From Singulisphaera sp. GP187 (GTDB taxonomy: Bacteria; Planctomycetota; Phycisphaerae; Phycisphaerales; SM1A02): 64,000 nucleotides of DNA. This document shows, one piece after another, positions 1-26,110 of this stretch; within the stretch, counting starts at the first letter, position 1, and the number at the start of each line of letters is the position of its first letter. The notes beneath the pieces are model-generated. The model did not search any database, was not told the origin of the DNA, and saw only the letters and a list, made by a program, of their open reading frames with translations. The DNA lies in the NCBI GenBank assembly GCA_945871445.1, contig CAMBWI010000002.1, positions 1-64,000 of the forward strand. The letters run 5' to 3'. Made by a program: the position numbers and the translations under genes.

Positions 1-160
1 CCAGGCTGATTTCCCGGTTGATTGCCAGGCTGATTTCCCGGTTGATTGCCAGGCTGATTTCCCGGTTGATTGCCAGGCTGATTTCCCGGTTGATTGCCAG
101 GCTGATTTCCCGGTTGATTGCCAGGCTGATTTCCCGGTTGATTGCCAGGCTGATTTCCCG
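1..160. repeat. 24-bp tandem repeat encoding (GNQP)2 units
   Basis: Six identical 24-bp units fill 1-144, followed by a 16-nt partial unit; the array continues out of the window. Read on the minus strand inside the VWA/YceI gene, each unit encodes Gly-Asn-Gln-Pro twice. The length is a multiple of three, so copy-number change keeps the frame. Lack of variation between units points to recent expansion or ongoing homogenisation. Confidence 0.95.
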
Positions 161-2135
161 CACTTGAAGGAGGTGATGGCGTCCCAGTGTTTAATGTGTG
201 GGGACCAAAATTACCGGTGGGGCTATATGCAACAGGACCGGACGGACCCGCCGGAAGTCGAGCTCCCTCGATTGCAAAAATTATTTTCGCAGTCTTTCCA
301 AACTCTGTTGGAGCCGGTTCGATAATCCCATAGTCAGCAAGTTTGATATCTACAACGCCTTCAAACCCAGCACGTCGTCCGGTCGGCGTCTGTGCGAAGC
401 CCGTGCACTCGAAAGGTATGGTTAAGGAACGAGTCACGCCGCACAAAGTAAAATCGCCGGTTATCAAATATTTATCTGCACCATCCTGCACGCCGCTTGT
501 GCTCTGAAATGAAATTGTTTGAAACTTCTTGGCATTCAAGAAATTTGCGTTTAAAAAACGCTTCTCTATAAAATCCGCATTGCAATCAAGGGTTGAAACC
601 TGTGCCGTGAAATCAAACCGCGAAGGTACTAAATTCGTGTATTCAAATGTCCCAGTCATCGCATTGAAGCATCCCCAAAACTCTCCGGCTTTTTTATGCT
701 GAATCCGAAAAAGAGAATTTGAAAACATATCATCAATTTCGTATTTATCTCCACCTGATGCGGCATCGATGAAACGATAAGTCCCATGATTTTCGCTCGC
801 AATCTGCTTCATCGAAATCTCATTGGTGTTGTCGAAAAAACAGACGGTATTAATCTCTGTTTTATGATTTGGATTATTCTGGTTGATCGCCGCAAGCGAC
901 GCATTGGCATCGAAGCCACCATCGGTGAGCAAATAAATTGCATCGGGTTTTAAAGAGTTCAGTGCCAAAGCGAGGGAGTTGCTTGGGTCTGTACCTCCGC
1001 CAGATTGCGGCCCGTAACTTTCTGCATCAGCCCAATCCAGAAATTTTTTCTTATTCGAATTTGTTGCGTTTTGAAGCTTTGCTGCAGGCATTAAAAGCGC
1101 CTCGGTATCAAAAAATATGATGAAAAATGAACTTCCGTCTGTCAGGCGGTTGATGCTCATCTTCAATTCGGAAAGCATCTGATTCATCTTGATTGGGACA
1201 GTGACCATGCTTCCTGAAAAATCCAATATGAAAACTATTGACTTTGCCTTTGTCTGAATTCCCATGAATTCGGTCCCTGAGGGATCTCCACTTTCAGTTG
1301 ATAGTGATTTTCGAGTGCCTCGCTTGTCCACAAGAACGGGCCTCTCTAATTCCGTTGGTTTGGCAATATCTCCAGGAGGGGTCAAGCCAAGACGGGGCCG
1401 TGTCACTTTAGAAACCTCCTTCGGATTACCCAACTGTGGAGGATTGATTGTTGGAGTTGCAATACGAAATCCTTCAAGCGAAATGATGATCTTCACATCA
1501 TCGTGACCCGATCCATTTTCAATCTGGAAAGAGAGTCCGTAGTCCCGTAAGTTGAGAACAAATTCAGCTTCAAATCCAACACGATCGCGTTTTTGTTGTT
1601 CCGAAATACCAGTGCATTGAAACGGGATGACTATCTTCTTGGTGATTGCGCCGATGGTGGCGTTCAAAGTCACAAGAAAATCTTTCTCTGACTTTTTTTC
1701 ATACGAAATACTTTGAAAAGTAAACGCGGGAAAAGTGGCTACGTTCAAACACTTGTTGTCAACAAGTTTGACATCGAGTTCAGGGTGGTCACAGTCAACG
1801 CTCGCAGTCTGAACCTTGAAATCAAATTTCAGCGCGACGTCTGGTTCGTATTCAAAGGTTCCTTCTATATCATTGAAAAATCCCCAGAATTGGCCAGCAC
1901 CATTGTGGTTTACGCGAAAGAGGGCCATCGAGTAAGCGTCGTCAATTTTATATTTCAAATCGTCAACGCCGACCATTGTTTCGGAGGGAGGTGCTGCTGT
2001 AGGTGTGACAGAGGGATTTACAGATGCGGGCACCGTAGAAGATTGGCTGAACGCCTGATTCGTAGTAACTATGCAAAGAATGAAAGGAAGAATGGTCACC
2101 CAAAATAAATTTGAAGAGAAAACTTTTTTGTTCAT
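1..2135 (-). CDS. Exported YceI-VWA-YceI repeat protein (partial, C-terminus outside window)
   Basis: The minus frame is open from an ATG at 2135 (in-frame ATGs also at 2144 and 2153) to the window edge, about 711 residues. Residues ~1-30 look like a signal peptide (FWVTILPFILCIVTT, then small residues). Residues ~55-228 and ~440-640 are both YceI-like and resemble the separate YceI gene just upstream (SMALFRV.H..G.FWG.F, later a PF.C.G strand). Between them, at ~300-440, is a von Willebrand A domain with all MIDAS elements: DFSGS, a Thr in GGGTDPS, and TDGG. The visible end is a (GNQP)n repeat. Known: YceI folds are periplasmic lipocalin-like binders of isoprenoid-type ligands, and VWA domains bind proteins through a metal. 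Inference: a secreted or surface binding protein. I do not know a named family with this order. Confidence 0.75.
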   Translation of the reverse strand, partial: MNKKVFSSNLFWVTILPFILCIVTTNQAFSQSSTVPASVNPSVTPTAAPPSETMVGVDDLKYKIDDAYSMALFRVNHNGAGQFWGFFNDIEGTFEYEPDVALKFDFKVQTASVDCDHPELDVKLVDNKCLNVATFPAFTFQSISYEKKSEKDFLVTLNATIGAITKKIVIPFQCTGISEQQKRDRVGFEAEFVLNLRDYGLSFQIENGSGHDDVKIIISLEGFRIATPTINPPQLGNPKEVSKVTRPRLGLTPPGDIAKPTELERPVLVDKRGTRKSLSTESGDPSGTEFMGIQTKAKSIVFILDFSGSMVTVPIKMNQMLSELKMSINRLTDGSSFFIIFFDTEALLMPAAKLQNATNSNKKKFLDWADAESYGPQSGGGTDPSNSLALALNSLKPDAIYLLTDGGFDANASLAAINQNNPNHKTEINTVCFFDNTNEISMKQIASENHGTYRFIDAASGGDKYEIDDMFSNSLFRIQHKKAGEFWGCFNAMTGTFEYTNLVPSRFDFTAQVSTLDCNADFIEKRFLNANFLNAKKFQTISFQSTSGVQDGADKYLITGDFTLCGVTRSLTIPFECTGFAQTPTGRRAGFEGVVDIKLADYGIIEPAPTEFGKTAKIIFAIEGARLPAGPSGPVAYSPTGNFGPHTLNTGTPSPPSSAGNQPGNQPGNQPGNQPGNQPGNQPGNQPGNQPGNQPGNQPGNQPGNQPGNQP

Positions 2136-9436: not shown

Positions 9437-9759
9437 AAGCAAATCGACTTGAGTGGAGTTTGGCCACCTCTGCATGCGTTCTTGGAACCATTCTTGTGAT
9501 GCTTTGTCTATTCCAGCCGCTTGATCCCATCGCTCAAGCTGGCGAATCGGTTGGCCCGGCAGCAAACGGAATTGGAGTTATGACGCTTTCGAATGGCGAA
9601 GGTCCCGACAACCGTCCGAGCGAATGTGTTTATCTGCTGGATAATCGAAATGAAATGTTGATGATCTATTCGGTTGAAGTCGTAAGCGGAAATCGCTCCC
9701 TTGCACTGCGTACCGCAGAAAAGCTTCCCGCTCTCTTTCGCGCTGCACGGCCTCGCTGA
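9433..9759 (+). CDS. Small exported hypothetical protein, paralogue of preceding gene
   Basis: 108 residues from the ATG at 9433; an ORF start at 9349 would overlap the upstream gene by 88 bp. An N-terminal signal or anchor helix (WSLATSACVLGTILVMLCLF) is followed by a domain with VYLLDNRNEMLMIYSVEVVSGNRSLALRTAEKLPALF. It shares the bulky-hydrophobic, Asp/Glu, Met-rich strand pattern with its neighbour, as in small beta-propeller-blade-like repeats. deoC starts 4 bp after the stop. Function unknown. Confidence 0.65.
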   Translation: MKANRLEWSLATSACVLGTILVMLCLFQPLDPIAQAGESVGPAANGIGVMTLSNGEGPDNRPSECVYLLDNRNEMLMIYSVEVVSGNRSLALRTAEKLPALFRAARPR

Positions 9760-9763
9760 CGCT

Positions 9764-10738
9764 ATGCGCGCACGCCCGGTCGAGACTGTCACTGCCATCT
9801 CGCGCGCAGCGCGATTTACAAAACGATCGATCAAGGCTGGTTCGAAGCGACACGCGTTGCGTCTCACGCTTTCGATGCTCGACATGACGACACTCGAAGG
9901 AAAAGATTCCACAGAGAAGATTCGTGCCCTTTGTCAAAAGGCAATCTCTCCAAGTGATTTCCCTTTTACGCCACCACTCCCAAGCGCGGCTGCTGTCTGC
10001 GTCTATCCAGCGCTCGTGCCGATTGCGCGCGAAGCAGTTGCAGGAACAAATATGAAGGTGGCTTCTGTTGCGACAGGATTTCCAAGCGGTCAATTTCCGC
10101 TTGATGTTCGCCTTGATGATTGCCGCAATGCGGTCGAAGCTGGAGCGGACGAAATTGATATGGTCATTTCGCGCGGATTGTTTCTTGCGGGACGATATGA
10201 CGATGTGCGACGCGAGATTCGCGAAACTCGTGCAGTGTGCGCTGCGGCATCGAAATCAATCGGCCGCGAACCAGTTCATCTCAAAATCATTCTCGAAACA
10301 GGTGAACTTGGAACGCTGGATTCAATCCGATTCGCAAGCGATCTTGCGATCGAAGCGGCGACGAGTGTTTCGGGCTTGCCAGATCCAACCGACGGTGAAA
10401 TTTTTATCAAGACATCCACTGGAAAAATTCAGCCAGCTGCAACAATGCCTGTCACATTGATCATGCTTGAAGCAATTCGCGATCACTTTCTTGCAACTGG
10501 ATTGCGCATCGGAATGAAGCCGGCAGGTGGAATTCGTACTGCGAAGAGCGCCATCGCATATTTGGTGATGGTGAAGGAAACCCTCGGTGAAGAATGGTTA
10601 ACTCCATCGCTCTTTCGATTCGGTGCATCCACACTGATCAACGATGTTGTGCGTCAACTGATTCGATTGGACATGCCTCGCGCATCGCCAATCGAAGGTG
10701 CAGTTCGATATGCGGCGTCATACGATCCAACTGAATGA
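9764..10738 (+). CDS. deoC: Deoxyribose-phosphate aldolase
   Basis: 324 residues from the ATG at 9764, four bases after the preceding stop. Splits 2-deoxyribose-5-phosphate into glyceraldehyde-3-phosphate and acetaldehyde. The class I aldolase TIM barrel is clear: VASVATGFPSG, GADEIDMVIS (catalytic Asp), KIILETGEL, the Schiff-base Lys in EIFIKTSTGK, and MKPAGGIRT with the second Lys. At 324 residues it matches the longer DeoC type, with ~75 extra N-terminal residues over the E. coli form. Acetaldehyde from this reaction is a plausible substrate for the ALDH16 pair at 22.9-25.3 kb. The stop directly abuts repeat cluster A. Confidence 0.93.
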   Translation: MRARPVETVTAISRAARFTKRSIKAGSKRHALRLTLSMLDMTTLEGKDSTEKIRALCQKAISPSDFPFTPPLPSAAAVCVYPALVPIAREAVAGTNMKVASVATGFPSGQFPLDVRLDDCRNAVEAGADEIDMVISRGLFLAGRYDDVRREIRETRAVCAAASKSIGREPVHLKIILETGELGTLDSIRFASDLAIEAATSVSGLPDPTDGEIFIKTSTGKIQPAATMPVTLIMLEAIRDHFLATGLRIGMKPAGGIRTAKSAIAYLVMVKETLGEEWLTPSLFRFGASTLINDVVRQLIRLDMPRASPIEGAVRYAASYDPTE

Positions 10739-10854
10739 AATGCCTCTGCGGCTGTTTCTGCGGCTGTTTCTGCGGCTGTTTCTGCAGCTGTATCTGCAGC
10801 TGTATCTGCGGCTGTTTCGGGAGCTGTATCAATCGAACTTCCACTTGCGTTCCC

Positions 10855-10980
10855 AGCCGCTGGAAAGTTCTCTCGGGCGAGTTCCGCAGGCGGCCGACGG
10901 CACTTGCATTCGAACATCGATTGAATCGATCGTGTCGGTCGCCGAGGACTGTTTGAGCCCCGAGAGGACTTTCCACGGCT
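10855..10980. repeat. Hairpin element A1
   Basis: Left arm AGCCGCTGGAAAGTTCTCT plus CGGG (10855-10877) pairs with the right arm ending at 10980 (CCCGAGAGGACTTTCCACGG core), with one bulged C and one G.U pair. An inner stem of GGCGGCCGAC (about 10889-10898) with GTCGGTCGCC (10934-10943) contains a G.U wobble at a position that is A-U in cluster B. The terminal loop is about 30 nt. Confidence 0.85.
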
Positions 10981-11074
10981 GACTCAATTTGCTGTCCGAT
11001 TCTGCGGCTGCCCACATATGCGATTCTGTGGCTGCGTCCGCGGCTGTTTCAGTCGCTCTTCAACTTGCGTTCCC

Positions 11075-11200
11075 AGCCGCTGGAAAGTTCTCTCGGGCGA
11101 GTTCCGCAGGCGACTGACGGCACTTGCATTCGAACGTCGATTGAATGGATCGTGTCGGTCGCCGAGGACTGTCTGAGCCCCGAGAGGACTTTCCACGGCT
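11075..11200. repeat. Hairpin element A2
   Basis: Second copy in the same orientation, 220 bp from A1 and nearly identical. In its inner stem the sequence is GGCGACTGAC, where C to T changes a C-G pair to U.G and still pairs with GTCGGTCGCC. The loop is shared with A1 apart from two base changes, so A1 and A2 arose by tandem duplication. Confidence 0.85.
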
Positions 11201-11295
11201 GACTCAATTTGCTGTCCGATTCTGTGGCTGCCCACATATGCGATTCTGCGGCTGCGTCTCCGGCTGTGTCGACAGCTGTTTCAGTTGCGCTTGCG

Positions 11296-13923
11296 CTAAA
11301 GCGTTCCCCACGATGCAAGCAGTATGGCCAAATCCAATCCATCAACAACTCCATTCAAATCAACATCCGCGTTAGAACTTCCATCCCCCCATGATGCCAA
11401 AAGCACGGCAATATCAAGCCCGTCAACCATTCCATCCAAATTGATATCCCCGAGCGCGCGCTCGCATCGATCAGCCTTGCTATCCGAATCTACATCGCTC
11501 AAATGTATTTCGACTCGCGCACCACCCACAAGAATTCCAGATCGCGCTTCTCGATACGCACCAATTGCTGCGTATTCTCCACGCACGGCGACTGCAAATC
11601 CAGCTCGAATGGGACCACGACTCTCCCATCCTGATCCTGTCAACTTAAAACATTCGTGAGCTCCACTACTTTCGGGAGATCCCCACGAGCCGACGAATAA
11701 CAACTCGCCGTCAATCGCAACATGCGATCCAAATTTTCCGCCATTGACTGGTGATGCAGAATAAATTGTCTGTGTGAGTTGCCACTGCGAACCGCTGGGT
11801 TCGAATACAAAGACCGCGCTGCCGTTGAGACTGGATTGGGAGCCAGCGCCTGGAGCACCAACAATTATTCGGTTTTCATCGATAGCAACCGACGATCCAG
11901 CGCGCCCTGCATTCGCGGGGAATCCTTCCAGTCGTGATGCGCTCTGCCAGCCCGTTGAGATTCGACGCGAAACATACACAGCTCCAACTTCAAATTGCCC
12001 ATCAACTATGACATATGGAGCGCCAATCACGATGACTCCATCTGAAACAGCAACGGACAATCCAAAATTTCCTTGATTCGTTGCATCAAGCGGTTCGAGC
12101 ATCTTGACAAACTGCCAGACCGAATTGATCCGCTCGTAAACAAATACGCGCCCGCGCTGTATGGGGCCTCCAGTGACGATGGTCTCTGGAGATCCAACGA
12201 CAATCACATCGCCCTGTATTGCAATCGATGCGCCAAATCTTCCTGATACTGTCGGACTTGAAGAAACTAAAGTTGCATTCAATTGCCACGGCGCACCAGT
12301 TGATGATTTTTGAAAAACAGAAACATCGCCAGCGGCATTCAAGCCTTGTACATCGCGCATCTCGCTACCAATTGCAATGAATTGACCATCAACAGCAACA
12401 GATCTGCCGAAGACATCAAGTGCGGCTGGATTCGTGTGCCGAAGTGTTGCTACAAATTGTGTTGTGCTTCCAGAAATTGAAAAGACGCTTGCACTTCCTG
12501 TAAAGTTGCCGCCCACATCATCGCCGTATGCGCCAACAACTGCGGTTTGTCCATCCGTATCAACTGCATATCCATAAAAATTATCTGCAACGATGGCTTG
12601 TGATGGCAAGCCAGCGATCACTCCACCTTCACAGAGAAATCGAGAGGGATCAGTACAGATCGCAGTAGAGAGCAAATCACATTGATCAAGAACTCCATTG
12701 CCATCGCAATCACTCGCAGAACCATCAGCAAGTTGCAGGATGTCCACTCGACCATCTTGATCACAATCTCCAAATGATCCTGGCGGTGCGGAACAACGAA
12801 ATCCGCGAATTGCATCGTTTGTCAAGACGAGTGATCCGGCATTATCGCGTCCAGCATCTGAACCAACTGGCGCAATTCCTGTTGGTGTATTGTTAAAATT
12901 CACCAAAGGATTTGAAAAGTTGTCGATGCGCGCACCTGGCGAATATGCCATGACAGTTCGATAAACCGTTCCGTTGGATCCACTAAAGCGGTGACCAACC
13001 GATTGCGGAAAGAGTCCGCCAGATGTGCAGCCACCACCATCGTTTGGAGCATGACAACAACCCATGTTGTGTCCAAGTTCGTGAGCAAATGTCTGAGTGG
13101 CCAAACAACTCCACGAAGTCACACTAAAGCCAATTCCAGAAACAGATGGATCATTCGCGGGCATCAAATATGCGATGCCGCAATACTCACCTGTTGAACG
13201 AATCATTGCAACAAGATCCGCGCCTGCCACATCACGGAGTTGATGGATCTCGTCAAGAATTCCGTCGCCACCATTTGCGAGCGTGCTGAGATCTGAACTA
13301 AAACTTACTTCCGTATATTGAATTTCGATGTCCAACACCACTCGAATGCGTGGAGCAATTTCGCTGTTTGAATATGCGGCATTCGCACTTGTTTCCGCAA
13401 GATCGACAAGCGCTGCAAGCGGACCAACTCCACCAGCTTGTTCGCGCGCAGCTGGCGTAGTTATGACCAAGACATCGACTGTTGGAGCATCAACGCATCC
13501 TCCGGCGATTCCACCTTCGGTTTGGCCATTCATCCCAATTTGTCCAAGAAGTTCTGGAGGAGCCTCGACTGCTCCCGCGCAATCCTTCATCGCTTCAGGC
13601 GGAAGAATCTCGAATTGAAGCGGTTTCCCAACAACACCTCGCGCTCCCCATCGAATTCCAGATCCATCAACAAGAGTTGCAGCAAGAAAACCAGCGCGCT
13701 CGACGATGATCGCTTGAATTGGTCCATCAACATCATTGCCGGTCAGAACACACGATCTTCGGCCGACGGCGCGCTCGGTGACTTTCGAAGAGGTGAAATC
13801 AATTTCCAGAGGCCACTGCGCTTGAAGAGCATCCCACCCAGCAACAATCGGAGTCGCTGCGGTTTTTGTTTTCCCCGTTGCCTCCATGCTCAAAAAAAAT
13901 AGGAGCGCGAACGGAATAAACAT
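11296..13923 (-). CDS. Secreted metzincin metalloprotease with FG-GAP-like repeats and C-terminal dockerin-like EF hands
   Basis: 875 residues. An N-terminal signal (FIPFALLFFLS) leads to a propeptide-like region. The reprolysin/M12-type catalytic domain is at ~150-385, with VDVLVITTPAAREQAGG and the zinc site HELGHNMGCCHAPNDGGGC (HExxHxxGxxH). A DCDQDGRVD / DCDGNG calcium-binding stretch comes at ~400-420. Seven or so integrin-like repeats (YGDDVGG, VAVDGQFIAIGS, VAIDENRIIVGAPG) fill ~440-800, and a dockerin-like pair of EF hands ends in LLASWG. Known: such dockerins in Phycisphaerae occur without cellulosomes and probably sort or anchor secreted proteins. Its last three codons and stop lie in a flank of repeat cluster A. 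Confidence 0.88.
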   Translation of the reverse strand: MFIPFALLFFLSMEATGKTKTAATPIVAGWDALQAQWPLEIDFTSSKVTERAVGRRSCVLTGNDVDGPIQAIIVERAGFLAATLVDGSGIRWGARGVVGKPLQFEILPPEAMKDCAGAVEAPPELLGQIGMNGQTEGGIAGGCVDAPTVDVLVITTPAAREQAGGVGPLAALVDLAETSANAAYSNSEIAPRIRVVLDIEIQYTEVSFSSDLSTLANGGDGILDEIHQLRDVAGADLVAMIRSTGEYCGIAYLMPANDPSVSGIGFSVTSWSCLATQTFAHELGHNMGCCHAPNDGGGCTSGGLFPQSVGHRFSGSNGTVYRTVMAYSPGARIDNFSNPLVNFNNTPTGIAPVGSDAGRDNAGSLVLTNDAIRGFRCSAPPGSFGDCDQDGRVDILQLADGSASDCDGNGVLDQCDLLSTAICTDPSRFLCEGGVIAGLPSQAIVADNFYGYAVDTDGQTAVVGAYGDDVGGNFTGSASVFSISGSTTQFVATLRHTNPAALDVFGRSVAVDGQFIAIGSEMRDVQGLNAAGDVSVFQKSSTGAPWQLNATLVSSSPTVSGRFGASIAIQGDVIVVGSPETIVTGGPIQRGRVFVYERINSVWQFVKMLEPLDATNQGNFGLSVAVSDGVIVIGAPYVIVDGQFEVGAVYVSRRISTGWQSASRLEGFPANAGRAGSSVAIDENRIIVGAPGAGSQSSLNGSAVFVFEPSGSQWQLTQTIYSASPVNGGKFGSHVAIDGELLFVGSWGSPESSGAHECFKLTGSGWESRGPIRAGFAVAVRGEYAAIGAYREARSGILVGGARVEIHLSDVDSDSKADRCERALGDINLDGMVDGLDIAVLLASWGDGSSNADVDLNGVVDGLDLAILLASWGTL

Positions 13924-21750: not shown

Positions 21751-22430
21751 CTTGGGCCGTAATCCCCAATCCGTTTGGTGCTGTCACAAGCACCGATTTC
21801 CATTTCCTTCCCAACAATCCCGTTCCACCCTGCAAAAGCCTCTTCCTATCCTCCTAAAGTCCATTTTCCTACCCTCCAAATCTCAATTCTGGCAATCAAA
21901 TTTGGGCTCCGAAATTTCTCGCCTAGCCCACTTTGATCGACAAGCCGGCTCCGAAACGCTCGCCTAGCCGGCTCTCCAAACGAGTTCGAGAATGTCAGGG
22001 GGTTTCCCCGTTCCTTAGTGCGTCGTGATGTAAGCGCTTGGCGCAATCTCGTTTGCTGAACGGGGCGCCTCTTGGATTCTCTAACACAATGACTGTCGAT
22101 TACAAAGCATTCTGTTGCAAGTAGAATCCATCATATTTTGAAAAATGCTGTTTCTTGCATAAAAATGATGATCTGAAGCGAGTGAGGTGGATTCGAACAT
22201 TGTTCGTGCAGATTTTGGCGAATCAAATTCTCGCTTAGCGATATTTCCGATCCGACGCACATCTGTGTGCGTGCCCAGCGGGGTTTTTTCCGAACCAAGC
22301 GAGTGCTCGATTGCCCCTGCGAACCCGCGAGTTTCGTCAGTGAAGGTCGCTGGCGCGGCGTTGATCGTTTCAGCTGTATCAGTGGCTGATTCCGCGGCTG
22401 TGTCAGTCGCACTTACGCTTGCGTCCCCAG

Positions 22431-22550
22431 CCGTGGAAAGTTCTCTCGGGCGAGTTCCGCAGGCGACCGACGGCACTTGTAAAAAAAATTCGTAAACCGG
22501 ATCGTGTCGGTCGCCGAGGACTGTGTGAGCCCCGAGAGGACTTTCCACGG
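22431..22550. repeat. Hairpin element B1
   Basis: Left arm CCGTGGAAAGTTCTCTCGGG pairs with right arm CCCGAGAGGACTTTCCACGG over 20 bp with a single T.G. The inner stem GGCGACCGAC with GTCGGTCGCC is fully paired. The terminal loop (TTGT, a run of A, TTCGTAAACC) is unrelated to the loop in cluster A. Confidence 0.85.
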
Positions 22551-22716
22551 AGGGCCCACTTATGCAATTCCGCGGCTGTATCCGCGGCTGAATCAGTAGC
22601 CGATTCCGCGGCTGAATCCGCGGCTGAATCCACGGCTGTATCAGTGGCCGATTCCACGACTGTATCCGCGGCTATGTCCGCGGCTGTGTCAGTCGCACTT
22701 ACGCTTGCGTCCCCAG

Positions 22717-22836
22717 CCGTGGAAAGTTCTCTCGGGCGAGTTCCGCAGGCGACCGACGGCACTTGTAAAAAAAATTCGTAAACCGGATCGTGTCGGTCGC
22801 CGAGGACTGTTTGAGCCCCGAGAGGACTTTCCACGG
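22717..22836. repeat. Hairpin element B2
   Basis: Copy of B1 in the same orientation, 286 bp away. It differs at one base in the internal loop (CTGTTTGAG versus CTGTGTGAG) and matches cluster A at that base. Arms and inner stem are identical to B1. Confidence 0.85.
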
Positions 22837-22942
22837 AGGGCTCACTTATGCGATTCCGCGGCTGTATCCGCGGCTGTGTCCGCAGCTGTATCCGTCGCTA
22901 TGCCCGTCGCTCGAACTCACTTTCACAACGCTCAACCAAGCA

Positions 22943-23824
22943 TCACAATCCAACCGTATGCCACACCGTCTTCACTTCCGTGACCCCTTGAAATGCGCTC
23001 GGGCTTGACCACGCTAAATCTTCTAGGAACTTCGCTTGTGGATCAACCAGACGAACTCGCTTCAGATTTTCCGCAACACCCAACTGCAGAATCTTCGCCA
23101 TTTCGGGCTGAACACTCGCAACAACTGCGTCGATATCACGGTGCGCCGCAACAACCGGTACCAATTCCTCGCGCAATCCAGTTAATACATTTAATACGCC
23201 CGGCGGAATGTCTGCACTCGGCGCGCATTCTGCGACGATCAACGCCGGAACAGGTTCAACCGAACTCGGCATTGCGATCACCGAACAACCGCACGCAATC
23301 GCAGGTAACGCCAAAGTCAAAAATCCAATCAGCGGAAATTCTTCTGGCGCGAAGACCGCGACAACACCAGTTGCTTCGATCTGCGAGAAGCAGTGAAATG
23401 GTCCAGCGACTGCATTGCGACCACCCACAACGCTGTCCAATTTATCGCACCATCCCGCGAAAGAAAGTGTTCGATCAATTGCAATTTCAACTTCGGTGCG
23501 AGCTTTGCCTTTCCCAACTCGACCACTCATCCGCACGGCGTCGATCAATTCTTCTCTGCGGCCATCGAGCAACTCTGCCAATCGATAGATGATTTGTCCG
23601 CGTAAATATCCACTTGATGCCGCCCACTTTTCCTGCGATGCCCGTGCAGCTTCAACTGCATCACGCAAATCTTTTCGAGATGCTTGCGCGGCATACGCCA
23701 ATGCTTTCCCGCCAGATCGGTTGGTCAAATCATTCACGGGCGCGACACGCCCAGATTCGCTGCGGGGAAATGCTCCACCTATAAAAAGTTTCCATGTCTT
23801 TGTGATTTCTGATCTTTCGGTCAT
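22943..23824 (-). CDS. ALDH16 C-terminal-type non-catalytic aldehyde dehydrogenase domain protein
   Basis: 293 residues. An aldehyde-dehydrogenase-like domain without the catalytic half: it has the N-terminal Rossmann region (FAPEEFPLIGFLTLALPAIACGCSVIAMPSSVEP, PPGVLNVLTG) but no catalytic Cys and no Glu of ELGGK. It ends at TEVKTVWHTVGL. This matches the second, inactive domain of ALDH16 proteins (human ALDH16A1 about 800 residues in one chain). The catalytic first domain is the next gene upstream (gap 31 bp); 483 plus 293 residues equals the usual ALDH16 length. The ATG at 23824 has a GGAG site, so it is a real separate gene and not a read-through product. Confidence 0.8.
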   Translation of the reverse strand: MTERSEITKTWKLFIGGAFPRSESGRVAPVNDLTNRSGGKALAYAAQASRKDLRDAVEAARASQEKWAASSGYLRGQIIYRLAELLDGRREELIDAVRMSGRVGKGKARTEVEIAIDRTLSFAGWCDKLDSVVGGRNAVAGPFHCFSQIEATGVVAVFAPEEFPLIGFLTLALPAIACGCSVIAMPSSVEPVPALIVAECAPSADIPPGVLNVLTGLREELVPVVAAHRDIDAVVASVQPEMAKILQLGVAENLKRVRLVDPQAKFLEDLAWSSPSAFQGVTEVKTVWHTVGL

Positions 23825-23830
23825 CGTATT

Positions 23831-23835
23831 TCTCC
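23831..23835 (-). promoter_or_regulatory. Shine-Dalgarno site of ALDH16 C-terminal gene
   Basis: GGAGA on the minus strand, seven bases before the ATG at 23824. It lies in the 31-bp gap after the catalytic ALDH stop and decides the start over the in-frame codon at 23974. Confidence 0.65.
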
Positions 23836-23855
23836 AAGTTTGATTGCAAGCAGTT

Positions 23856-25307
23856 TCACGCGCAATACGCAGACAATCCAGAGCGACCACCTTCGCGACC
23901 AAATCCAGATTCGCGATATCCACCAAACGGTGCAGCGGGATCAAATTGGTTGAATGTATTGCACCAAACAACACCAGCCTTTATTTGTCGCGCAACTTCA
24001 TATGCCTTGGATCCACGACTTGTCCAAATGCCAGCGCTCAATCCATACATTGTGTTGTTTGCGCGGGCAACGGCTTCATCGGGTGTACGAAAGGTCATCA
24101 CAGCAAGAACTGGACCAAAGATTTCTTCGCGAGCAATTGTGTGTGCGGGTTGAACTTCGGTGAAGAAGCAGGGCTTACACCAAAATCCTTTCGGCGGTAA
24201 TACGACATCCGAAACTTCGTGACGCTGCGCGCCTTCCGCAACGCCAATCTTGATGAAACTTTCAATACGATCGAGTTGCGCACGACTGTTGATCGCACCA
24301 ATATCTGTGTTCTTGTCGAGTGGATCACCAACTCTCAGACTTCGCATTCGCATTCGGAGTTTTTCGATCACTTCATCTGCGACAGATTCTTCGACGAGCA
24401 ATCGACTGCCTGCGCAACACACCTGACCTTGATTCGCCCAAATCGACGAAACAATTCCTTCGACCGCTTGATCAATCGCTGCATCTGCGAAAATAATATT
24501 TGGACTTTTTCCGCCTAATTCCAGCGTTAATCTCTTCTTTGTGCCCGCAACGGTGGACGCAATCGCACGTCCAACATCGGTCGAACCTGTAAATGCGATC
24601 TTGTCAACATCGCCGTGCGCAACAAGTTCGCGTCCTGTCTCTCCAGCACCAGTGATGATGTTGACGACACCTGGAGGGAGATCAATCTCTTGTAAAATCT
24701 CCGCGAGTCGCAAAGCTGTCAGTGATGTTGTTTCGGCGGGCTTCAGTACAACGGTGTTTCCGCACGCAAGCGCGGGCGCAATTTTCCAAGCAGCCATCAT
24801 CAAAGGAAAGTTCCATGGAATAATTTGTCCACAAACTCCAATTGGCTCGGGCGCACTTCCGTTTGCTGTGGGGCAGGCCCATTTCAGTTTGTCGCACCAC
24901 CCAGCATGATGAAAAAAGTGTGCGGCCGACTGGGGGACATCTTCATCGCGTGATTCGCGTATCGGTTTTCCGTTATCCATCGTCTCGAGCACCGCAAGTT
25001 CGCGCGCTCTTTCTTGAATGCGACGAGCGATGCGATACAAATATTTCGCGCGCTCAAGCGCTGGCGCACGCCGCCAATTCTTCAATGCCTTGCGCGCTGC
25101 GACGACAGCGAGATTGACATCTATCGCATCTGCCTCGGAGATTCGCGATAAAGAAACCTCGGTCGCAGGATTGATCGTCTCGATTGAACACCCGGAGCGG
25201 GGCTCGCGAAATGCGCCATCAATAAAAAGTCCATATTGCGGTTTGATTTCCACCTTTGTCGATTCTGGAGCAGGTGCATAATCCCAAATTGTGCTCGGCG
25301 TCTTCAT
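23856..25307 (-). CDS. Aldehyde dehydrogenase, ALDH16 catalytic-domain type
   Basis: 483 residues from the ATG at 25307 (an ATG at 25328 adds seven). Oxidises an aldehyde to the acid with NAD+. The start TIWDYAPAPES is typical of ALDH16. Motifs: IIPWNFPLMMAAWKIAPALACGNTVVLKPAE (cofactor site), FTGSTDVGR, LELGGKSPNI (general base Glu) and the catalytic Cys in NQGQVCCAGSRLLV. It ends with FGGYRESGFGREGG. Together with the downstream gene it equals an ALDH16 protein split in two. A deoC gene lies 13 kb away; deoC and ALDH16 genes are often neighbours in other bacteria, consistent with acetaldehyde oxidation. Confidence 0.9.
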   Translation of the reverse strand: MKTPSTIWDYAPAPESTKVEIKPQYGLFIDGAFREPRSGCSIETINPATEVSLSRISEADAIDVNLAVVAARKALKNWRRAPALERAKYLYRIARRIQERARELAVLETMDNGKPIRESRDEDVPQSAAHFFHHAGWCDKLKWACPTANGSAPEPIGVCGQIIPWNFPLMMAAWKIAPALACGNTVVLKPAETTSLTALRLAEILQEIDLPPGVVNIITGAGETGRELVAHGDVDKIAFTGSTDVGRAIASTVAGTKKRLTLELGGKSPNIIFADAAIDQAVEGIVSSIWANQGQVCCAGSRLLVEESVADEVIEKLRMRMRSLRVGDPLDKNTDIGAINSRAQLDRIESFIKIGVAEGAQRHEVSDVVLPPKGFWCKPCFFTEVQPAHTIAREEIFGPVLAVMTFRTPDEAVARANNTMYGLSAGIWTSRGSKAYEVARQIKAGVVWCNTFNQFDPAAPFGGYRESGFGREGGRSGLSAYCA

Positions 25308-25413
25308 CTTCCTAGTATCCCATGCCAATCCATCGCATGCTTGACGAAATTTTTTATATGTGGAACCAATCTCAATAAAAATTCTTGTCTCAATTGCCGT
25401 GATTCTTATTTAG

Positions 25414-26110
25414 ACTTCGCCAGAAGCCCGACTCGATGTGCTTCCAACTGCGGGGAATTCTGTATGTATTGGAACTTATGGCAGTGGCCGGACATCCGAA
25501 CCGACAAAGAACGGAGATTGGGGGAAATGTGGACGGTGCGAAATCGAAGCGCCTCTTCCAAATGGATATTCCGCGCCAACTCCGCCAGGCGCAATTGAAT
25601 TGAAGTCATATCCATCGGTTCGCTGCGCCGAGATTTCCTCCAAGGGCAGCACTGGAATGGGAATGTCTGCATCATTTTGGCCACTATTCAATCACATCCA
25701 ATCGCAAGAAATTGCGATGACCAGTCCGGTCGAAATGGATTATCGCGGAGTGATGGAGCAGAATTCGAATCAGCTCAGCGAAAAAATGGTTCGTGGACGA
25801 TGTCTTTTCTCTATCGCGAAAACGATATGAGGCCCACAGGAAAAGATGGCGCGGTCACCATTCTGGACACAGCACCGTTCTCTCTGTAGGGTTGAAGGGG
25901 GCATATGGCATAAAGAAAACAAATGAAGGGTTGAATGGGGCATATGGCATAAAGAAAACAAATGAAGGGTTGAAAATTCTCACTGATTGGATTGCCGCAC
26001 ATCCTGCGTGGCGCGCCGTTGGAGATGCATGAACATTCTCGTATAACGGCCCCGCAGTTCGAAATGGTGACAAATGGTGCGAAGTCCAATTACCAATCGA
26101 ACTGAAGTCT
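25414..26110 (+). pseudogene. Decayed SOUL-type heme-binding family gene with 39-bp duplication
   Basis: Three frames together spell a SOUL/heme-binding family protein. Frame one gives ELKSYPSVRCAEISSKG and FWPLFNHIQSQEIAMTSPVEMDY up to an A6 run at 25781-25786. A shifted frame gives WTMSFLYRENDMRPTGKDGAVTILDTAP to a TAG at 25887. A third gives TVLSVGLKGAYG..LTDWIAAHPAWRAVGDA to a TGA at 26030, after which TFSYNGPAVRNGDKWCEVQLPIELK continues in the same frame. So there are two frameshifts and one nonsense codon, the 5' end seems lost, and a 39-bp direct repeat (25889-25927, 25928-25966) duplicates 13 residues. Not functional as read. Confidence 0.75.
25889..25966. repeat. 39-bp tandem duplication
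   Basis: Two adjacent 39-bp units beginning GGGTTGAA and ending AAATGAA, with one base difference (AAGG versus AATG). In the old reading frame they encode GLKGAYGIKKTNE and GLNGAYGIKKTNE, a duplicated segment not seen in the family consensus. Confidence 0.9.

What the first reader, a model, noticed from the sequence alone, without database searches (positions are those of the whole stretch)
22360..22920. Cluster B: same element, with substitutions that keep the hairpin paired
Seen: two further copies of the hairpin next to the 3' end of the ALDH16 C-terminal gene. Arms are conserved between clusters while the loops differ completely. In the inner stem, B has GGCGACCGAC, A1 has G for A and A2 has T for C; each change gives a G.U wobble instead of a mismatch against GTCGGTCGCC. 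That pattern suggests selection for the folded RNA or DNA hairpin, not for coding.
Basis: partly seen in the sequence, partly recalled or inferred. Interest (0 to 1): 0.74.

Follow-up and report, generated by a model that had tools for sequence, protein, structure and literature searches.

The report
REP-like hairpin repeats between convergent genes
The four hairpins in this window belong to a large, previously uncatalogued family of roughly 100-150-base folding repeats found dozens of times per genome in a group of lake-dwelling planctomycete bacteria; they sit mostly where two genes run into each other, evolution has kept them folded by matching mutations on both sides of the stem, and an unpaired loop in the middle is almost frozen, which points to a dedicated protein that recognises the fold.

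Summary
Observation confirmed. Cluster B holds two tandem copies of a ~129-nt hairpin (22427-22555, 22713-22841), related to two copies in cluster A. The covariation claim, weak on four copies, holds on 99: 11 of 29 pairs show compensatory double changes (0 of 500 shuffles). Stems vary about 1-5%, the terminal loop 20%, and an unpaired internal loop (GCGAGTT, facing TGTYTGAGC) least of all (0.1% on its 5' side). That argues for sequence-specific recognition of a folded strand, beyond mere pairing.

The family is broad. At least 50 copies lie in this 2.26-Mb MAG and dozens in each of several congeners. Other congeners and two further genera carry hairpins with entirely different but still paired stems around the same loop. 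It was found in 3 of 45 sampled genera of the family. No Rfam match, no phage copy, no RAYT transposase (19 congeners).

Copies prefer convergent gene junctions (21 of 31 sites; background 18%). 31 of 35 sites are shared with other species, while several relatives have the empty junction (25-57 bp).

Best reading: a REP-like hairpin family, spread by an unidentified factor and now held in place under selection on its fold. Termination or mRNA 3'-end roles remain open. New variant of a known kind.

The parts
22427..22555 (+). hairpin element copy B1
   Evidence: nhmmer/blastn/CM match (R2 88.9 bits, E 1e-18); fold -71.2 kcal/mol, z -6.35
22713..22841 (+). hairpin element copy B2 (98% identical to B1; tandem unit of 286 bp)
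   Evidence: 91.8 bits
22431..22450 (+). B1 outer stem, 5' arm (CCGTGGAAAGTTCTCTCGGG)
   Evidence: fold; covaries across copies
22530..22550 (+). B1 outer stem, 3' arm (CCCCGAGAGGACTTTCCACGG; one bulged C common to most families)
22450..22456 (+). B1 invariant internal-loop motif, 5' side (GCGAGTT)
   Evidence: 0.1% variation over 115 copies; shared by families with unrelated stems
22522..22530 (+). B1 internal-loop motif, 3' side (TGTGTGAGC; consensus TGTYTGAGC)
22462..22471 (+). B1 inner stem, 5' arm (GGCGACCGAC)
22506..22515 (+). B1 inner stem, 3' arm (GTCGGTCGCC)
10853..10982 (+). hairpin element copy A1
   Evidence: 92.7 bits
11073..11202 (+). hairpin element copy A2
   Evidence: 92.2 bits
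10745..10842 (+). 12-bp tandem repeats (TCTGCGGCTGTT) that accompany the hairpins, cluster A
   Evidence: the repeat finder D1
22569..22702 (+). 12-bp tandem repeats (TCCGCGGCTGTA type) between B1 and B2
   Evidence: the repeat finder D1
22855..22904 (+). 12-bp tandem repeats after B2
22202..22279 (+). flank of the composite unit (GTTCGTGCAGATTTTGGC + GAATCAAATTCTCGCT ... CTGTGTGCGTGCCCAGC) from which the second, oppositely oriented hairpin (type II) seen in congeners is missing
   Evidence: comparison with G011/G012/G007 loci
22943..23974 (-). ALDH16-type C-terminal ORF, 3' end next to cluster B
   Evidence: orthologues in 17 of 19 genomes
9701..10738 (+). gene ending at cluster A (deoC-like by reading of the translation)
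11296..13923 (-). convergent gene on the other side of cluster A

Best explanation
The element is one copy of a lineage-specific family of long REP-like hairpins. SHOWN: copies form a long hairpin whose helices are kept by compensatory mutation and whose middle carries a nearly invariant asymmetric internal loop. They are dispersed, often in tandem or head-to-head pairs, with species-specific stems. They lie preferentially at gene 3' ends, above all convergent junctions, and arms are conserved at orthologous sites better than the neighbouring genes. INFERRED: a trans-acting protein recognises the folded single strand through the GCGAGTT/TGTYTGAGC loop. The family spread in the past by copying of the folded strand by an enzyme not identified here (a REPIN/MITE-like process without RAYT). 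Local copy number changes by unequal recombination. Insertions survive mainly between convergent genes, where they break no promoter. Resident copies are now held by selection on the fold, probably because the hairpin acts at transcript 3' ends or on single-stranded DNA during replication.
For: Dispersal: 50 or more copies in own genome, many contig ends inside copies; dozens in 5 congeners. Structure. Invariant unpaired core. Stems specific to each species, different between species. Empty sites: junction A is 25-57 bp in G004, G018, G005, G008, G010, G007 but 262-924 bp with elements in G000, G011, G012, G016, G015. Copy number change by deletion of one exact unit, G011 vs G012. Sharply bounded near-identical copies with inverted ends GCGGCCGTCGC/GCGACGGCCGC in genus g18. 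Site preference: 21/31 sites convergent against 17.8% background, p 1e-9. Constraint in place: orthologous G000-G011 copies 92.5% identical in arms and core, flanking genes 84%, loops 72%; 31 of 35 G000 sites are shared with another species.
Against: No mobilising enzyme was found: Y1 transposase PF01797 is absent from all 19 congeners while controls ring. No clean target-site duplication could be read at empty sites, because flanks are too diverged. Most sites in the own clade are old and shared, so mobility is past, not observed. Neutral relics of a selfish element should decay evenly, which these do not, so some in-place function must be added. Protein recognition is inferred from conservation only.
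Confidence: 0.5

Rival explanations
1. A cis-acting RNA element of transcript 3' ends: read from either convergent gene, the long hairpin stops or slows RNA polymerase, shields the mRNA end from 3' exonucleases, or blocks read-through into the opposite gene; its spread is secondary.
For: Strong preference for convergent junctions; stable fold with covariation; conservation in place. In non-convergent tandem sites of G000 the element is antisense to the genes in 7 of 8 sites, so one strand (the minus strand) would be the one usually transcribed.
Against: No T-run follows either end (0 of 94 and 0 of 87 copies with 7 or more T in 12), so it is not a canonical intrinsic terminator. The same junctions work without it in several relatives. 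Orientation differs at a few orthologous sites (7 flipped pairs against 261 same).
Confidence: 0.27
2. A DNA-level chromosome site: the hairpin or its core is bound by a nucleoid, replication or topoisomerase protein (as bacterial interspersed mosaic elements of REPs bind gyrase or IHF), with polarity set by replication.
For: Orientation is biased against local GC skew in G000 (19 of 24 sites, p 0.007) and G011 (18 of 20, p 0.0004), and reversed for type II hairpins (11 of 11).
Against: No significant bias in G007 (8 of 13). Gene orientation is confounded with skew. Many congeners have few or no detected copies, so no essential genome-wide role.
Confidence: 0.13
3. A recombination/attachment site like integron attC: folded hairpins delimit exchangeable gene cassettes.
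For: In G010 and G008 two outward-facing hairpins at the same chromosomal place enclose different restriction-modification systems (C5 methylase; EcoRI methylase + GmrSD/HNH endonuclease). Adjacent outward-facing pairs without cargo occur.
Against: Integron integrase is over the cut-off in only one of 19 congeners, although many carry the family. Most copies flank no cargo. Only one cargo locus was seen.
Confidence: 0.07
4. Ordinary palindromic MITE debris, conserved only because the spread was recent.
For: Inverted ends and dispersed identical copies in genus g18.
Against: Loops are diverged (20% minority bases) while stems and unpaired core are not; compensatory changes; sites shared across species with 84% identical flanks.
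Confidence: 0.03

Closest known systems
REP / REPIN elements with RAYT (GTAG and CGTC palindrome superfamilies; PMC3733652, PMC3116915)
   Same: Dispersed intergenic palindromes, tens to hundreds per genome, species-specific stems with a shared unpaired signature, head-to-head dimers, preference for convergent and 3' locations; CGTC REPs likewise lack a dedicated transposase (PMC3733652).
   Different: About 75-150 nt instead of 20-40; the shared signature is an internal loop in the middle of the hairpin (GCGAGTT/TGTYTGAGC), not a GTAG or CGTC tag at one end; no Y1 transposase in any of 19 congeners.
ERIC, bcr1 and similar 100-200 bp intergenic palindromic repeats (from own knowledge; bcr1 papers located but not read)
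   Same: Size, long imperfect hairpin, intergenic, probably transcribed, no known transposase.
   Different: No sequence relation was tested directly; Rfam has no match. Here one core loop is shared by several families with unrelated stems and pair types.
Integron attC sites (own knowledge)
   Same: Imperfect ssDNA hairpin with conserved unpaired features and freely varying stems.
   Different: Conserved part is mid-hairpin, not the base; integrase over cut-off in 1 of 19 congeners; generally no cassettes.
Bidirectional intrinsic terminators (own knowledge)
   Same: Hairpin between convergent genes.
   Different: No T-run on either side; 40+ bp imperfect stem with conserved internal loop; junctions work without it in relatives.

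Membership tests
REP (GTAG/CGTC superfamilies, RAYT-mobilised) | short 20-40 nt palindrome with GTAG or CGTC unpaired tag at one end (PMC3733652) | tested here: not met
   elements are ~75-150 nt; no terminal tag stands out in alignments of 99 and 21 copies
REP (GTAG/CGTC superfamilies, RAYT-mobilised) | Y1/HUH REP-associated transposase in the genome | tested here: not met
   PF01797: 0 of 19 congeners, 5 of 14 control genomes positive
REP (GTAG/CGTC superfamilies, RAYT-mobilised) | intergenic, mainly convergent/3' location, head-to-head dimers | tested here: met
   21/31 sites convergent; type II/type I outward pairs
MITE | terminal inverted repeats at sharp borders | tested here: met
   clear in genus g18 (GCGGCCGTCGC/GCGACGGCCGC); in G000 CAGCCG...CGGCTG
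MITE | target-site duplication and parent transposase with the same ends | tested here: inconclusive
   flanks too diverged to read duplications; parent element not found, no full transposase survey possible
Integron attC | integron integrase in genomes carrying the sites | tested here: not met
   TIGR02249 over cut-off only in G000 of 19 genomes
Intrinsic transcription terminator | G+C hairpin followed by a run of T | tested here: not met
   no copy has 7 or more T in 12 nt on either side
Known Rfam RNA family | covariance-model score over gathering cut-off | tested here: not met
   no match in window; only a spurious miRNA hit, 20.5 of 100 bits

The most novel reading that the evidence does not exclude
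A separate superfamily of structure-defined bacterial hairpin elements, unrelated to REP/RAYT. A fixed asymmetric internal loop is read on the folded single strand by an unknown protein. The surrounding helices are free to change as long as they pair, so that each species carries its own stem versions, placed at convergent gene ends, oriented with replication, and occasionally bounding exchangeable defence cassettes.
Probability: 0.25. Interest if true: 0.8.

Novelty: new variant of a known kind. Interest (0 to 1): 0.6.

Why it matters
Palindromic intergenic repeats are usually explained either as RAYT-driven mobile REPs or as transcript 3'-end devices. Here is a family without RAYT in which a single unpaired core has stayed fixed while the stems were replaced wholesale in each species. 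That gives a natural saturation mutagenesis of a nucleic-acid recognition motif and a direct way to fish out the protein that reads it. It also offers natural filled/empty junctions in sister species to test what such hairpins do between convergent genes.

Tried and rejected
Coding: arms conserved at all codon positions, loop indels, no conserved frame; rejected. Rfam membership: none. RAYT/REP: PF01797 absent in 19 genomes. Integron attC: integrase only in G000. Phage origin: the type I pattern has no match in viral contigs; the looser core pattern matched 4 contigs, but these fold into no such hairpin and are chance. A generic hairpin scan over syntenic regions was too noisy to use. A regex scan for cores next to cargo failed for technical reasons. 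Loop similarity at orthologous against other sites: higher only for the closest pairs (G011/G012, G009/G011, G009/G016), so loops do not track site history at larger distance.

Full report
1. The observation. Cluster B holds two + strand copies of one hairpin, 22427-22555 and 22713-22841, in a 286-bp tandem unit; cluster A holds two related copies, 10853-10982 and 11073-11202. B1 folds at -71.2 kcal/mol, z -6.35 against dinucleotide shuffles.

2. How many and where. The own genome (a 2.26-Mb MAG in 96 contigs, 82% complete) has about 52 copies by blastn and at least 55 by covariance model; many contigs end inside a copy. Five congeners have dozens each (G007, G009, G011, G012, G016); others have few or diverged copies. 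Public titles of carrier records are planctomycete MAGs, with inconsistent names, one labelled Phycisphaerales from Lake Baikal. The type I pattern has no match in viral contigs. The looser core pattern matched four viral contigs, but none folds like the element, so these are chance.

3. Covariation. On 99 copies found by similarity search (A1), 98.4% of pair cells are standard, 11 of 29 pairs have double compensatory changes (shuffled mean 1.7, 0/500 shuffles), and sliding the register destroys the signal. Examples: TTCTCTCG/CGAGAGGAC becomes TTTGCTCG/CGAGCGAAC; GGGC/GCCC becomes GTGC/GCAC in G007; G015 copies have an unrelated but paired outer stem. Caveat: the shuffle control does not model relatedness; the slide control does.

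4. Constraint is not only pairing. Mean minority-base frequency over 115 copies: 5' internal loop CGAGTTCCGCA 0.1%, inner stem 3.4% and 0.6%, outer stem 4.0% and 5.2%, 3' internal loop 2.8%, terminal loop 19.8%, flanks 24-31%. The unpaired internal loop is thus the most fixed part.

5. A broader family. The model R1 and then core patterns recover hairpins with completely different stems in nearly every congener and in genera g2 and g18, all with GCGAGTT on the 5' side and TGTYTGAGC on the 3' side. Over 21 representatives (57% mean identity) the outer helix is 89% paired, with 47 double-change cells against 16.6 expected and covariation 0.555 against 0.189. Caveat: these 21 were collected with a pattern that demands the core, so the core's invariance there is by construction; in A1 it is not. 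A second hairpin type (core GCGAGTTTGCAAG...GCAGCATGTTTGAGC, two outer-stem versions) lies next to type I in opposite orientation in several species; in window cluster B its flanks are present without it. Model R2 finds the family in 3 of 45 sampled genera of the taxonomic family and in none of the others. A wider class sample by exact pattern gave only this genus; that pattern is narrower than the models and misses, for example, genus g18.

6. Context. With a simple codon-based gene caller, 31 of 43 resolvable copies in the own genome, or 21 of 31 independent sites, lie between convergent genes, against 17.8% of all gene pairs in a 464-kb sample (64-kb window plus 400 kb; p 1e-9). No T-run follows either arm.

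7. History. 31 of 35 own sites have an element at the orthologous place in at least one other species, and 261 of 268 orthologous pairs have the same orientation. At orthologous G000-G011 sites flanking genes are 84% identical, arms plus core 92.5%, loops 72%: selection acts on the resident copies. Yet junction A is empty (25-57 bp) in G007, G010, G008, G004, G018 and G005, against 262-924 bp with elements in five others. Copy number changes by loss or gain of one exact unit (G011 vs G012). In g18 near-identical copies end in sharp inverted repeats.

8. Mobiliser and polarity. No Y1/RAYT transposase exists in 19 congeners; an integron integrase over the cut-off occurs only in G000. Element orientation is biased against local GC skew in G000 (19/24) and G011 (18/20), reversed for type II (11/11), but not significantly in G007 (8/13). 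Gene orientation is a possible confounder, so this is suggestive only.

9. Interpretation. It works like a REP family: dispersed, structure-defined, gene-end hairpins with species-specific stems, and dimers. It is not a member of the RAYT/GTAG REPs: size, position of the signature and transposase were tested and not met. The most likely mechanism is recognition of the folded strand through the fixed internal loop by a protein still unknown, historical spread by an unidentified enzyme, survival mainly between convergent genes, and present selection on the fold. Whether RNA or DNA is the acting form is open; the lack of T-runs speaks against plain intrinsic termination but not against other 3'-end roles.

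Noticed in passing
L267:2163-4684 (G010) and L268:2283-5004 (G008): At the same chromosomal place two congeners carry different restriction-modification systems (C5 methylase; EcoRI methylase plus GmrSD/HNH endonuclease), each enclosed by outward-facing hairpins of this family.
   Followed up: partly
G000:C71:7062-8006 (L479): The window's own genome has an integron integrase (365 bits, over the cut-off), the only one among 19 congeners; whether attC arrays follow was not checked.
   Followed up: no
window 22943-25328: The ALDH16-type protein is split into two overlapping ORFs, and the same split is seen in congeners.
   Followed up: no
window 10745-10842, 22569-22702: 12-bp tandem repeats (TCCGYGGCTGTA) flank the hairpins and resemble the hairpin's right end (CACGGCTG); in genus g18 the right end of that family's hairpin is likewise repeated downstream.
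   Followed up: partly
L153:1890-2018, L162:5449-5576, L216:1501-1635: Some hairpins carry an additional nested hairpin module (TTGTCTTGGCGCGCGCC...GGCGCGCTGGATTTCAG) inside the terminal region.
   Followed up: no
window 1-192: 24-bp repeat array (CCAGGCTGATTTCCCGGTTGATTG) at the left edge of the window.
   Followed up: no
window 25885-25962: Two direct 39-bp repeats, 95% identical.
   Followed up: no
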